Shown one piece after another: positions 5,666 to 9,833 of a stretch of DNA of 64,000 nt. Under the pieces are notes generated by a model. The model was not told the DNA's origin, made no database searches, and saw only the letters and a program-made list of their open reading frames with translations. The stretch is taken from contig NZ_CP012371.1 of NCBI RefSeq assembly GCF_000619905.2, positions 1,488,001 to 1,552,000 of the forward strand. Direction: 5' to 3'. The DNA is from Nitrosospira briensis C-128 (lineage in GTDB: Bacteria; Pseudomonadota; Gammaproteobacteria; Burkholderiales; Nitrosomonadaceae). The translations under genes were made by a program, and so were the position numbers. Within the stretch, counting starts at the first letter, position 1; every line of letters starts with the position of its first letter.

Positions 5666-6304
5666 TCAGCGTAATGCTGCCACTTTACGCCATACGCTGG
5701 CGAGCCATGATTGCTGTTCGAAAGGAAGGCCCGCAGGGCGATAGTAATGGGTAATTTCGACGAACCCGGCATTGGTGAGGTAGTGCCGCCAGCTTTCGAT
5801 ATGGTGATATACGCCGTAGCGCCCCTGGTTCCAGCCCTCCTCGTTATTTCCCCGGGGGTTCGAGCTGAATAACACCCCGTCCGGTTTCAGCGTTGCCCAA
5901 AGTTCCTTCAATATACGCGATAGCTCGGAAGTGGGAACATGAAACAGTGAAGCATTGGCAAATATGCCGTCGAAGTATCCATCCGGCAAATCGAGCCTGA
6001 GAAAATCCTGATGCCATACCTCGCAACCGCTATGACTGCGGGCCATCTCGACAAAAGTCATCGCCCCCTCCAGTCCTGTTGCGATATGACCTAGTTCTGC
6101 AAAAACCTTCAGGTCACGGCCTGGCCCACACCCGAAATCCAATATGTTGAAGGGCGGAACGGCCTTGATATATTGAAGCAGCGCGGCGATATTTTGCCCG
6201 ACGTCATGGTCTTTCGTTCCCGTCCAGAAAGCCTCGGCACGTTCGTTGTAGCGAGCCAGCGTAAGGTCGGTGATTTCCCCGAGATCCAGCAAATTTGGCT
6301 TCAT
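5666..6304 (-). CDS. Class I SAM-dependent methyltransferase
   Basis: This is a 212-residue Rossmann-fold methyltransferase. Motif I, ILDFGCGPGRDL, is at residues 54-65, with an acidic end of strand beta-2 (TGLEGA) and a DGIFANASLFHVP motif IV region. The sequence gives no substrate; it resembles small-molecule methyltransferases of the UbiE/MenG superfamily rather than RNA enzymes. It is the first gene of a probable two-gene unit with the BaiN-like flavoprotein. Its upstream region is occupied almost at once by a MITE-like repeat (6335-6495), so the promoter may lie inside or beyond that element. Confidence 0.85.
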   Translation of the reverse strand: MKPNLLDLGEITDLTLARYNERAEAFWTGTKDHDVGQNIAALLQYIKAVPPFNILDFGCGPGRDLKVFAELGHIATGLEGAMTFVEMARSHSGCEVWHQDFLRLDLPDGYFDGIFANASLFHVPTSELSRILKELWATLKPDGVLFSSNPRGNNEEGWNQGRYGVYHHIESWRHYLTNAGFVEITHYYRPAGLPFEQQSWLASVWRKVAALR

Positions 6305-6334
6305 ATCGGGCGACTCTCATCGAATGTGATATAA

Positions 6335-6495
6335 CCCGGACGTTTCATAAATTGACGCGCGCCCTTGCTGGTCTTTTGTTTCGCATGAAAATTTCGTTCA
6401 GTCGGGCGTATGAATAACTACGCCACTCTTTCACAAAATTTCCCTGCAAAACAAAATCCTGCGCAATCATCACGCGAATTTATGAAACATCCGGG
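6335..6495. repeat. 161-bp MITE-like element, copy A
   Basis: This 161-base element has terminal inverted repeats CCCGGACGTTTCATAAATT and the reverse complement of AATTTATGAAACATCCGGG. It is flanked on both sides by ATAA, a likely 4-base target duplication. The same element, about 95% identical by eye, occurs in inverted orientation at 9420-9580. Neither copy can code for a transposase, so movement would need one supplied in trans. The two copies bracket the MNIO/EF-hand operon. Confidence 0.88.
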
Positions 6496-6580
6496 ATAAA
6501 AATATTATCGCGATTTATTCCGTGGACAAGCGGCTATGGCTCACCCAATTGAGTAGTGTACGGAAAACAATGACATTATA

Positions 6581-7336
6581 TTATTTGGAAACACCCAGTA
6601 TCGCGCCACGCGCCATCAAATCACGCATGATTTCAAGCCCGCCCCGAATCACAACCTCGGGCGAGGGATGTCGACTTTCCATGGCCACGATTTGAAGCGC
6701 CGCTTTGCCTGTATGCTCGGCAGAAGCCAGGAGATTTATCAGGCGTGACGTAAATGCGTTTATCTCGGTGAATTGAATCTGATCATCGGCATTGCGAAAT
6801 ACGAGCAGATAGGTTTCTATTGGCGTGACTTGTGTGCGGGGACAAATACGGTGTACCGGCCAGTTATAACGAAGGTTAGCGAAAACGGGATTCAAAACCG
6901 GACGCTGTTCCAGCAAGCTACCTTCCCGGTCGATTGCTGCCCACGCCGGGGCCAGGGTTGAAATGGAAAGCGCCAGTTCTACCCATTCGTAGTGCGCGAG
7001 CTCCAGCACGAATTCCGGGTAATTTGCCGGTATCGCCTCTTCGCTCTGCAGGAAGTGGATGAACTCATCGGGTATCTGGCGAAAAAAAGGCGAACGGCTG
7101 CGATGCGTGGCAAGAAAACTGCGCATGAGTCGAGTCCACCGCCGTTTTCCCAGCACTTTATTGAGCACGGGAAAACAGGTAAGGAGAAAGCTCTCCAGAT
7201 TGTTGTAAACCAGCTTCCTGTATATTTCCATGCGCCGCCTGTCAATACCGAGCGGGCAGGGGTTTATCCTGGGGTTGCGTATATGCGCAGTGAAAGCGTA
7301 CTGGAAACGCTGAAATTCAGGAAGCGGCATACTCAT
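6581..7336 (-). CDS. DUF2063 / HvfC-BufC-type partner protein of the MNIO enzyme
   Basis: In characterised systems this family is the accessory partner of DUF692 enzymes that modify cysteines in small exported peptides. The 251-residue protein has the family's N-terminal helical block ([19 protein letters not shown], then [13 protein letters not shown]) and the later block [13 protein letters not shown]. The start ATG at 7336 overlaps the end of the DUF692 gene by 20 bases, so translation is probably coupled. It is the last gene of the four-gene minus-strand operon. About 85 bases of AT-rich DNA separate it from repeat copy A, and I see no clear terminator there. Confidence 0.9.
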
Positions 7337-8168
7337 GGCCCGGCCCGTAATGCTGGGTCTGGATCAAGCCGATGCGCTCGACTTCGCGCACCAGTTCGTG
7401 GAGGGGCGGGATATTGAAATCGCGCTCCAGCAGGGTGGGCGCCACGCCGTGAATATGGTAAGTTTGTTCGAGCAATGACCATACCGGATCGATCACGTCC
7501 GCGCCATGCGTATCGATGATCAAATTCTCCGCTTCATTATAGTGACCGGCCATGTGCATATAAACGATGCGCTCGGTAGGCATCGCACGAATAAATTCAA
7601 TCGGGTCGTAGGCGTGATTGATGCTATTGACGTATACATTATTGACGTCGAGATGCAGATTGCAATCCGCCTCGACCAATACAGCGCGAATAAAGTCCGC
7701 TTCACTCATCTCGGCGATGGGTGCCTGCACATAAAACGAAGCATTTTCCAGTGCGATGCGTCGCTCCAGAATATTCTGGGTGCGGCGAACCCGTGCCGCA
7801 ACATACTTTACCGCTTCTTCAGTAAAGGGTATTGGAAGCAGATCGTATAGATGGCCATCGTCGGAACAATAGGAAAGATGTTCGGTGTAGAGTCGGATTT
7901 GGTGTCGATCCAGAAACTGACGGATCTTTTGCAACAATACCTCGTCCAGCGGCGCCGGACTGCCGATCGAGAGCGAAAGGCCATGGCAGACGAAGGGATA
8001 GCGTTCAGTGAAAATGTGCAGATCGCGCCCCAGGATGCCGCCAAGATCGATCCAGTTTTCTGGAGCAATCTCGAAGAAGTCGATGGCATCGGGAACACCG
8101 GTTTTTAATGCCGGGATCAATTCCCGCCGAAAACCGAGGCCAACGCTGGCGGGTGGCAGGAATTCCAC
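7317..8168 (-). CDS. DUF692 multinuclear non-heme iron oxidase (MNIO), HvfB/BufB type
   Basis: MNIO enzymes use an iron cluster and O2 to convert cysteines in a precursor peptide, for example into oxazolone/thioamide or thiooxazole groups that bind copper. The 283-residue protein shows the family metal-ligand pattern: [10 protein letters not shown] (His62), YTEHLSYC (Glu96/His97), ENASFY (Glu141), [10 protein letters not shown] (Asp174), YMHMAGH (His205/His209), DTHG (Asp219/His221) and TLLERD (Glu248). It lies 11 bases after the second small precursor gene and overlaps the DUF2063 partner. The precursor-enzyme-partner order matches known hvf/buf operons. The exact product modification cannot be read from sequence. 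Confidence 0.93.
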
Positions 8169-8179
8169 GACGGGAAAAA

Positions 8180-8569
8180 TTACTTCTTCATTCCGGCATG
8201 CGGAGCTGTATTCGGCGCACTCGGCTTGGTTCCCCCATAGCTATCGGCCTCAGGCTGATCCACCGCCCCATCTTTGTTGGCATCGATCCTGTCGAAAATG
8301 TTTTCATGATGCTTGAGAAATTCTTGCTTGGTGACCTTGCCATCCTTATTGGCATCCACCATCGACATGCCGCATCGACCTTCGCCGGATTTTGCTGCAC
8401 CGCCATATTTGTTGGGGTCTACCTTATCGGCATACGCCAGCATATAGCCCTTATCCAGGGATTGAGCGGTGAAGGGGCTATCTGCTGCGGAGACAAGCGG
8501 TACGGCGCCAAGCGTAGCGGCAAGAGCGGAACCAACGGCTAGGGAAATCATGGTTTTCTTGTTGCGCAC
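8180..8569 (-). CDS. Small exported EF-hand protein with one EGRCG motif, probable MNIO substrate 2
   Basis: This 129-residue protein has a signal peptide ending at VSA-ADS (about residue 28), then one EGRCG at 63-67, whose Cys66 is its only cysteine. Two canonical EF-hand loops follow: [12 protein letters not shown] at 72-83 and [12 protein letters not shown] at 96-107. EGxCG is the motif modified by MNIO enzymes in HvfA-type peptides. The start is GTG at 8569, supported by an AGGAG eight bases upstream; a later in-frame ATG would cut the signal peptide. It is a diverged paralog of the gene at 8751-9134 (shared ADxPFTxQxLDKGYM segment). The substrate role is inferred from context and motif. 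Confidence 0.85.
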
Positions 8570-8643
8570 AGTATTTTCTCCTGAATTTTGGATGGAATAT
8601 TATGTCACAATTCGAATGAATTGGGGGTTGGCTTAGCTGGAAC

Positions 8644-8681
8644 CCCGCTTTCCTGCGCGCGATGGTGCACAGGAAAGCGGG
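8644..8681 (-). promoter_or_regulatory. Perfect 12-bp hairpin between the two precursor genes
   Basis: Arms CCCGCTTTCCTG (8644-8655) and CAGGAAAGCGGG (8670-8681) pair perfectly around a 14-base loop. No U-tract follows on either strand, so it is not a standard intrinsic terminator. Between a precursor gene and the rest of a RiPP operon, such a stem could block exonucleases or partly terminate, giving more mRNA for the first precursor than for the enzyme. That role is inference. Confidence 0.6.
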
Positions 8682-8750
8682 CCAGGCCATTCAAAACAAA
8701 GAAGATACGGATTCGACAGTAACTCTGAACAGTTCAGAAAGTATCTTTAG

Positions 8751-9134
8751 TTATTTACCGCTACCGCACTTGCCGTCTTTCATTTTGCCCTTCATCTCAT
8801 CTTTGCTGATAACGCCATCCTTGTCGGTATCCATATGTGCAAACATGGCATCGTGATGCTTGGTCCATTCTTCCTTGGTGATCTTCCCGTCACCGTTTGC
8901 GTCCGCCATAGCCGCGCCGCACCTGCCTTCGCCGCATGCACCTTCACCACCACACTTACCTTCTCCACTTTTCTTTTCGCCATATTTATGGGAATCGGCC
9001 ACCATGTAACCTTTATCGAGGGGCTGTATAGTGAATGGATTATCAGCGGCAGAAACACCCGGTACAGTACCGAGCGTAGCGACAAAAGCGGAGCCTATGG
9101 CGATAGAAATAAGGGATTTTTTGTTGGACATCAT
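8751..9134 (-). CDS. Small exported EF-hand protein with three clustered EGxCG motifs, probable MNIO substrate 1
   Basis: This 127-residue protein starts with a signal peptide (cleavage near VSA-ADN, residue 29). EGKCG (58-62), EGACG (64-68) and EGRCG (69-73) are packed together, and a fourth cysteine lies in DGKCG near the C-terminus (Cys123). Two EF-hand loops, DANGDGKITKEE (78-89) and DTDKDGVISKDE (102-113), have all expected Asp/Asn/Glu ligands. EGKCG-type repeats are the hallmark of HvfA-like substrates of DUF692 enzymes. A strong AGGAG precedes two adjacent ATG codons (9134 and 9131). It is first in the operon. Calcium binding and copper binding are predictions from motifs. Confidence 0.88.
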   Translation of the reverse strand: MMSNKKSLISIAIGSAFVATLGTVPGVSAADNPFTIQPLDKGYMVADSHKYGEKKSGEGKCGGEGACGEGRCGAAMADANGDGKITKEEWTKHHDAMFAHMDTDKDGVISKDEMKGKMKDGKCGSGK

Positions 9135-9369: not shown

Positions 9370-9419
9370 GATCATGGCAACGCTTCACGGAGAAATAAGA
9401 CAAAGACCTGCCATACTAG

Positions 9420-9580
9420 CCCGGATGTTTCATGAATTCGCGTGATGACTGCGCAGGATTTTGTTTTGTAAGGAGATTTTGTGAAAGAGTGGCGTAGTTA
9501 TTCATACGCCCGACTGAACGAAATTTTCATACGAAACAAAAGACCAGCAAGGGCGCGCGTCAATTTATGAAACATCCGGG
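9420..9580. repeat. 161-bp MITE-like element, copy B (inverted relative to copy A)
   Basis: This copy has the same length and ends as copy A (6335-6495), with CCCGGATGTTTCATGAATT at the left and AATTTATGAAACATCCGGG at the right. It is flanked by CTAG on the left and TTAG on the right, consistent with a YTAR-type target like that of IS5-family elements. About eight mismatches separate it from the reverse complement of copy A. With copy A it brackets the MNIO operon as an inverted pair. Confidence 0.88.
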
Positions 9581-9833
9581 TTAGAACAAACGTTTCTCGA
9601 CCATTAAATTAATGGGTTATTTATTTCCTTTTGGGGGTATTCAAGCGATGGGAATTCTGCAAGAATTCCCGCTGCCGATGTGAGGTAGGCTTCATGCAAA
9701 CGGATTGGCCGGAAGCCGTCTGAAGCTCAAGAGCGAAGATTATACGGCCTCAACTTACCTCGTTAACCGATCACGCTGACGCTCGGTCAAGTTCTCGGAA
9801 ACCACATCAGACGAACCGTCAAGCTACTTGCTG

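What the first reader, a model, noticed from the sequence alone, without database searches (positions are those of the whole stretch)
6581..9134. MNIO (DUF692) RiPP operon whose probable substrates are EF-hand proteins
Two small exported proteins carry the EGxCG motif known from HvfA-type substrates of DUF692 enzymes, followed at once by two canonical EF-hand loops each. The enzyme and its DUF2063 partner follow in the same operon, with 11-base spacing and a 20-base overlap. One substrate has three clustered EGxCG motifs plus a C-terminal Cys, the other only one. This suggests a copper (or other metal) binding modified peptide fused to a calcium-binding module, with two products of different capacity made by one enzyme. 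Motifs and layout are seen directly; the chemistry is from knowledge of hvf/buf systems; the calcium-copper combination is inference.
Basis: partly seen in the sequence, partly recalled or inferred. Interest (0 to 1): 0.78.

Follow-up and report, generated by a model that had tools for sequence, protein, structure and literature searches.

The report
One oxidase, several calcium-binding target proteins
An ammonia-oxidising bacterium carries an enzyme of a kind known to turn cysteines into copper-gripping rings beside two small exported calcium-binding proteins that are probably its targets; the pairing is already in print, but here the set has single-cysteine members and a third one far away on the chromosome, and a related genus without the enzyme keeps one of these proteins with just that cysteine replaced.

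Summary
The window (Nitrosospira) holds P1 (three EGxCG plus a C-terminal DGKCG) and P2 (one EGRCG), each with two EF-hands, then HvfB-type MNIO and HvfC. The architecture is not new: EGKCG|EF-hand chimaeras beside MNIO genes are published, and P. aeruginosa EfhP has four EGKCG repeats next to DUF692/DUF2063 genes. New here, by comparison only: (1) a third, unlinked precursor P3, with at least one EGxCG in 23 of 23 genus genomes, never beside MNIO; (2) P2 has exactly one EGxCG in 22 of 22 genomes, and in 11 of 23 genomes each precursor found has one site, although a published relative, FonBC, did not modify a one-repeat peptide; (3) in a related genus without HvfB (0 of 8), all 7 P2 relatives keep the EF-hand module but have Tyr for the Cys, and most leaders have drifted; P1 and P3 show the reverse pattern. 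Against: one Nitrosomonas without any MNIO keeps an intact motif, beside a copper-storage-like gene. Best reading: one HvfBC makes thiooxazoles on several Sec-exported Ca-binding proteins; copper binding is likely but untested. New variant of a known kind.

The parts
8751..9134 (-). P1: exported EF-hand precursor with three clustered EGxCG and a C-terminal DGKCG
   Evidence: orthologs or P1-type genes in the MNIO loci of 11 of 23 genus genomes, 3 of them without EF-hands
8916..8963 (-). P1 EGxCG cluster, residues 58-73
   Evidence: read from the translation
8763..8777 (-). P1 C-terminal DGKCG, residues 120-124, possible fourth site
   Evidence: FonBC modifies a DGKCG variant
8868..8903 (-). 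P1 EF-hand loop 1, residues 78-89
8796..8831 (-). P1 EF-hand loop 2, residues 102-113
8180..8569 (-). P2: exported EF-hand precursor with a single EGRCG and no other Cys
   Evidence: exactly one EGxCG in 22 of 22 genus genomes that have P2
8369..8383 (-). P2 EGRCG, residues 63-67; Cys66 is six residues before EF loop 1
   Evidence: abuts a short helix 68-71 in the AlphaFold2 model
8321..8356 (-). P2 EF-hand loop 1, residues 72-83
8249..8284 (-). P2 EF-hand loop 2, residues 96-107
8432..8569 (-). P2 Sec signal and leader-like stretch, residues 1-46 ([15 protein letters not shown])
   Evidence: shared with P1, P3 and g2 more than the EF module is; role inferred from HvfA
8596..8609 (-). conserved block TGTGACATAATATT upstream of P2, perhaps the core promoter of P2-hvfB-hvfC
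   Evidence: 22 of 22 P2-bearing genus genomes, 0 of 7 HvfB-less relatives; single site in the genome at up to 1 mismatch
7317..8168 (-). HvfB-type MNIO maturase, the only PF05114 protein in the genome
6581..7336 (-). HvfC-type DUF2063/RRE partner

Best explanation
One HvfB/HvfC pair modifies a set of exported EF-hand proteins: P1 and P2 beside it and, in trans, P3 elsewhere on the chromosome. The Sec signal and the following [NS]PF..QSL.KGYM.A stretch act as leader (inferred from HvfA). HvfB oxidises the EGxCG cysteines in the cytosol, most likely to 5-thiooxazoles, 4 Da lost per Cys (inferred from characterised HvfBC and FonBC). Sec exports the unfolded chain and Ca2+ folds the EF-hand pair outside (inferred). 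The thiooxazole next to EF-hand 1 then binds copper (inferred): P1 as a multi-site buffer, P2 and P3 as one-site proteins that perhaps pair up. The EF-hand part also has a role that does not need the modification. The confidence is for one HvfBC serving P1, P2 and P3; copper as the metal is less sure.
For: HvfB and HvfC models pass their cut-offs. One PF05114 protein in 22 of 23 genus genomes, two in the 23rd, against 2-3 EGxCG|EF-hand proteins per genome. P1, P2 and P3 share signal and leader. Mean identity to P2: N-terminus 0.60 (P1) and 0.55 (P3), EGRCG 0.93 and 0.92, EF module only 0.47 and 0.46; in the HvfB-less genus the order is reversed, N-terminus 0.41, EF module 0.65, Cys kept in 0 of 7. 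Cys kept in 22 of 22 P2 and 23 of 23 P3 of the HvfB-bearing genus. HvfA without its signal is poorly modified by HvfBC. Cys lies six residues before EF loop 1 in 73 of 82 rows.
Against: FonBC modified a two-repeat but not a one-repeat minimal peptide, and P2 and most P3 have one repeat. Nitrosomonas G443 has no PF05114 yet keeps leader and EGKCG intact; G439 has none (80% complete) and keeps the Cys in a broken motif (EAPCG). The Cys-to-Tyr change may be a single event in one genus, and whether those rows lie inside or beside P2 is unresolved. The drift of the signal could have other causes; two of the seven (L282, L283) keep a fair leader. P1 and P2 miss NCBIfam's HvfA-domain cut-off, P1 by 0.1 bit. 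No expression, mass or metal data.
Confidence: 0.72

Rival explanations
1. Only the multi-motif P1 is modified. P2 and P3 are unmodified Ca-binding proteins whose single Cys does something else, such as a disulfide dimer or a plain thiol metal site.
For: FonBC did not modify a one-repeat peptide. Antoine et al. raise the possibility that only some precursors in a genome are modified. G443 keeps the motif without any PF05114.
Against: P2 directly precedes hvfB by 11 nt and in 11 of 23 genomes every precursor found has one site, while HvfB is present in all 23. The whole EGxCG context, not just Cys, is kept (0.89 within P2), and the Cys becomes Tyr where HvfB is absent.
Confidence: 0.2
2. The EF-hand module is mainly a passenger or folding aid of an ordinary copper buffer and has no calcium function of its own.
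For: Three P1-type genes lack EF-hands (L004, L005, L008), and only 6 of 110 class-survey HvfB loci have EGxCG with EF-hands.
Against: The EF module is kept in 7 of 7 relatives that lost the Cys. EfhP is reported to bind Ca2+ and to act in Ca2+ responses (PMC9132961 and PMC11559002, passages).
Confidence: 0.15
3. The operon is a mobile cassette carried between the two inverted MITE-like copies.
For: 172-nt inverted copies, 94% complementary, flank it.
Against: At least 37 strong copies in the genome. Nsp11 has the same operon and neighbours with both sites empty. In 16 relatives compared, the dksA side aligns in 15 and the methyltransferase side in 12; some loci end too early to tell.
Confidence: 0.01

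Closest known systems
Buf_EGKCG|EF-hand_5|EF-hand_5 chimaeras (Antoine et al. 2025, PMC12452194)
   Same: Signal, short EGxCG part, two C-terminal EF-hands, MNIO and DUF2063 genes; a Ca role suggested
   Different: That text, in the parts seen, does not describe single-motif members as a conserved class, an unlinked orphan member served by one MNIO, or Cys-less relatives in enzyme-less genomes
EfhP (PA4107) of Pseudomonas aeruginosa with PA4106/PA4105
   Same: Periplasmic EF-hand protein beside DUF692 and DUF2063 genes; EGKCG repeats
   Different: Four EGKCG repeats and, in the passages seen, one gene; here one to four motifs over three genes at two loci
Oxazolin/captophorin systems (hvf of Haemophilus influenzae, fon, ngo)
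   Same: HvfB/HvfC pair; EGKCG cores; Sec-signal precursors; NPF..GY-like stretch in most survey precursors
   Different: Known precursors are repeat peptides of several EGKCG without EF-hands; no DoxX gene was seen among the ORFs listed around this operon
Bufferin systems (BufA/BufB/BufC)
   Same: MNIO and DUF2063 partner, Sec-exported precursors, copper role
   Different: BufB model scores 263.9, under its cut-off of 310; precursors unrelated to EGxCG types

Membership tests
HvfB-type MNIO | NCBIfam NF003818 over cut-off 360 | tested here: met
   432.4 bits
HvfB-type MNIO | makes 5-thiooxazole on EGxCG cysteines | not testable with these tools
   needs expression and mass spectrometry
HvfC-type partner | NCBIfam NF050145 over cut-off 142; DUF2063 plus RRE-type domain | tested here: met
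   271.7 bits; PF09836 and PF22106
HvfA-type precursor (NCBIfam) | NF050137 domain over cut-off 19.5 | tested here: not met
   P1 19.4, P2 15.4. Relatives without EF-hands or with more motifs pass: L004 short P1 23.1, L309 22.6 and L308 22.0
HvfA-type precursor (NCBIfam) | NF050188 equivalog over cut-off 95 | tested here: not met
   P1 13.3; P2 not listed at E 1
EGKCG|EF-hand chimaera (Antoine et al.) | EGxCG motif, then two EF-hand_5 domains, signal peptide, MNIO and DUF2063 in the cluster | tested here: met
   signal by eye only, their own HMM was not available
Bufferin maturase BufB | NF050167 over cut-off 310 | tested here: not met
   263.9
Lanmodulin | NF053806 over cut-off 135 | tested here: not met
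   P1 24.2, P2 22.7

The most novel reading that the evidence does not exclude
P2 and P3 are not buffers but folded periplasmic Ca2+ proteins with one enzyme-made thiooxazole at a fixed place, six residues before EF loop 1, forming a Ca-dependent transition-metal switch; one MNIO therefore acts as a general protein-modifying enzyme on unlinked targets rather than as a peptide biosynthesis enzyme.
Probability: 0.27. Interest if true: 0.75.

Novelty: new variant of a known kind. Interest (0 to 1): 0.5.

Why it matters
Antoine et al. leave open whether one MNIO modifies several precursors or only some of them. This genus offers a clean test: one HvfB, a set of proteins with one to four sites, one of them unlinked, and a related genus without HvfB that serves as a natural control. 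If P2 and P3 are modified, a single-site, folded-protein substrate extends MNIO chemistry beyond repeat peptides and ties it to calcium. The host group depends heavily on copper enzymes (recalled: ammonia monooxygenase).

Tried and rejected
Mobile cassette between MITE-like copies: rejected, both sites are empty in Nsp11.

Methyltransferase 5666-6304 as a tailoring enzyme: not a general part. By tblastn it is in 16 of 80 MNIO-query loci, all 16 titled Nitrosospira or Nitrosovibrio, and in 0 of 110 class-survey loci.

P1-P2 intergenic hairpin (about 8643-8681) as a conserved attenuator: the fold is strong in the window and in Nsp11; the other eight intergenic regions folded also fold, but with other sequences. 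Left as an observation.

Shared upstream block for P1, P2 and P3 (co-regulation): not found. The block is upstream of P2 and, as a variant, of some g2 precursors, but not in the 96-nt stretches printed upstream of genus P1 genes or of 17 P3 genes. A regulon was not found either: one site in the genome at up to 1 mismatch; about one is expected by chance at that laxity by my own estimate, so this says little.

AlphaFold2 models of P2 and P1: mean pLDDT 57 and 54; only the EF pair is fairly confident (P2 ten-residue means 82-90, P1 78-81). They show EGRCG abutting a short first helix (68-71) in P2 but say nothing on metal sites, so no fold search was run.

Pfam and NCBIfam named no family for the Cys-rich neighbour in L299; the PDB sequence search did. 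That gene was found in no other locus held.

The iron ligands of the MNIO were not checked one by one; its alignment to 3bww was only read by eye. P3 was not looked for outside Nitrosomonadaceae.

Full report
What is there. On the minus strand, P1 (8751-9134), P2 (8180-8569), an MNIO (7317-8168) and its DUF2063 partner (6581-7336) lie in that order. The MNIO passes NCBIfam's HvfB cut-off (432.4 against 360) and the partner passes HvfC's (271.7 against 142); the BufB model stays under its cut-off (263.9 against 310). Both small proteins pass EF-hand_5. It is the only PF05114 protein found in the 3.21 Mb genome. The closest named relative is Nitrosospira sp. Nsp11, MNIO 94% identical.

What is known already. 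Antoine et al. 2025 (PMC12452194; abstract, passages, Discussion and co-occurrence section seen) describe short Buf_EGKCG domains fused to two EF-hand_5 domains and name EfhP as an example of a Ca role. EfhP of P. aeruginosa is reported beside DUF692 and DUF2063 genes (PMC4053335, passage), to bind Ca2+ (PMC9132961, passages) and to hold four EGKCG repeats (PMC11559002, passages). Chemistry of this enzyme group: 5-thiooxazole, 4 Da lost per Cys, Cu binding (PMC13097082, passages and two sections; PMC13419390, passages). Searches on the rest: EGKCG anywhere, 8 papers, 7 listed; at least two of Nitrosospira, EF-hand, DUF692, MNIO and bufferin, 871 papers, 15 listed, none of the 15 with an occurrence of Nitrosospira; captophorin, 3 papers, 2 listed. 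I saw none on a Nitrosospira MNIO system; the 856 unlisted papers were not seen, and most subscription papers are not held.

A third precursor. Searching 61 genomes with P1 gave three matches in the own genome: P1, P2 and an unlinked one at about 732.1-732.6 kb, read as L112:2571-3077, 168 aa, with the same kind of signal, [15 protein letters not shown] and EGRCGMAMAD before two EF-hands. I call it P3. Over the 23 genomes of the genus (P1 sought only in the MNIO loci): P3 with at least one EGxCG in 23, exactly one in 21; P2 in 22, exactly one EGxCG in all 22; P1-type in 11, of which 3 lack EF-hands (74 aa; L004 ends in EGKCGNGK and a stop). G021 has a further unlinked P1-like gene (L113). In 11 genomes every precursor found has a single motif; a precursor unlike these could have been missed. 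All 23 genomes have HvfB; 22 have exactly one PF05114 protein and G013 a second, weak one. The P3 loci hold argJ in 22 of 23, a DUF815-type ATPase in 22 of 23 and MNIO in 0 of 23; the loci are 3.3-6 kb long, and the names are mine from the sequence, not from a family search. One P3 (L115) has two EGxCG-EF-EF units in a row.

Fixed geometry. Among 133 collected proteins, 89 had an EF loop by my pattern and 82 of those a CG cysteine before it; in 73 of 82 the Cys lies six residues before position 1 of the first loop matched. Rows are not thinned by species and most are Nitrosomonadaceae; most exceptions are records titled Thiobacillus. For a wider view I took 110 of the 120 over-cut-off HvfB matches listed (369 class genomes; the window and nine others left out). 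A loose filter flagged 82 of 110, including two spurious long frames and three with no EGxCG; 6 of 110 had both EGxCG and EF-hands. In these six the EF-hands sit between EGKCG motifs, as in P1, and four of the six have the spacing of six.

A genus without the enzyme. A related genus of the same family (8 genomes) has no HvfB over the cut-off; two genomes have an MNIO, both BufB-type by score. HvfC was sought in four of the eight and passed its cut-off in none. Seven of eight carry a P2 relative with an EF module; all seven have Tyr in place of the EGxCG Cys (EDKYG, GGGYG or GGKYG). L287 has one other Cys, at residue 2. In a tree with the motif masked, these seven and the 19 P2 rows form one side of a branch (100/99); whether they are inside or beside P2 is unresolved. 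Mean identity to P2 by region (16 P2, 7 HvfB-less, 4 P1, 5 g2, 7 P3 rows): P1, g2 and P3 keep the N-terminus (0.60, 0.63, 0.55) and EGRCG (0.93, 0.80, 0.92) above the EF module (0.47, 0.50, 0.46); the HvfB-less rows keep the EF module (0.65) above the N-terminus (0.41) and EGRCG (0.41). Enzyme-facing parts and EF part thus part company in opposite ways. Two of the seven (L282, L283) keep a fair leader. That Cys was lost rather than never present is inferred: the other rows of the tree were chosen for having EGxCG, so they do not prove the polarity.

Results against. From 125 family genomes (84 with a homolog at E 1e-12, 91 with HvfB over cut-off) I fetched the matches of the seven Nitrosomonas genomes with a homolog and no HvfB match, and 13 loci of genomes with HvfB. 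None of the seven has any PF05114. G443 keeps leader and EGKCG intact (L299); G439, 80% complete, has EAPCG and a weakened leader; the other five are EF-hand proteins, mostly His-rich, without EGxCG or NPF leader. Of the 13 loci from genomes with HvfB, 7 have EGxCG|EF-hand proteins and 6 such proteins without EGxCG. So of nine HvfB-less genomes with a close relative, the Cys is replaced in 7, the motif broken in 1 and intact in 1. The intact one lies 165 nt upstream, same strand, of a gene matching CSP3, a copper storage protein (E 4.3e-12), which fits copper but is a single case. FonBC's failure on a one-repeat peptide is the main chemical objection to P2 and P3.

Upstream block. TGTGACATAATATT begins 40 nt before the P2 start codon in the window and is present in the P2 locus of 22 of 22 genomes with P2, and in 0 of 7 of the HvfB-less relatives. 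It resembles a TRTG-type extended -10 element (recalled). Its absence may simply follow from a different location: in the three HvfB-less loci listed, the neighbours differ from those in Nitrosospira.

Mechanism. Shown: gene content, conservation, linkage and the Cys/HvfB pattern. Inferred: HvfC binds signal and leader, HvfB makes 5-thiooxazoles before export, Ca2+ folds the EF pair outside, copper binds at the thiooxazole. I put 0.72 on one HvfBC serving the whole set, and less on copper as the metal.

Noticed in passing
window 6327-6498 and 9417-9588: Two inverted MITE-like copies (172 nt, 94% complementary, TIR-like ends) flank the operon; at least 37 strong copies in the genome; both sites empty in Nsp11.
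   Followed up: yes
window 8643-8681: Strong hairpin between P1 and P2 without a following T-run; also in Nsp11, not the same sequence in the other relatives folded.
   Followed up: partly
L299:990-1304: CSP3-like copper storage gene 165 nt downstream of an orphan EGKCG|EF-hand gene in a Nitrosomonas genome without PF05114.
   Followed up: partly
L301-L305, L314-L318: Another exported EF-hand family in Nitrosomonas with, in most, a His-rich segment and a Cys (such as HGHQCEHK) where EGxCG would be; in genomes with and without HvfB.
   Followed up: no
L004:3187-3411, L005:3187-3411, L008:3198-3422: P1-type genes of 74 aa with three EGKCG and no EF-hands, as if the EF module had been cut out or never put in.
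   Followed up: partly
L115:2365-3171: P3 with a duplicated EGxCG-EF-EF unit: motif and EF pair duplicated together.
   Followed up: no
window 5666-6304: SAM methyltransferase next to hvfC, kept there in Nitrosospira and Nitrosovibrio loci only (16 of 80).
   Followed up: partly
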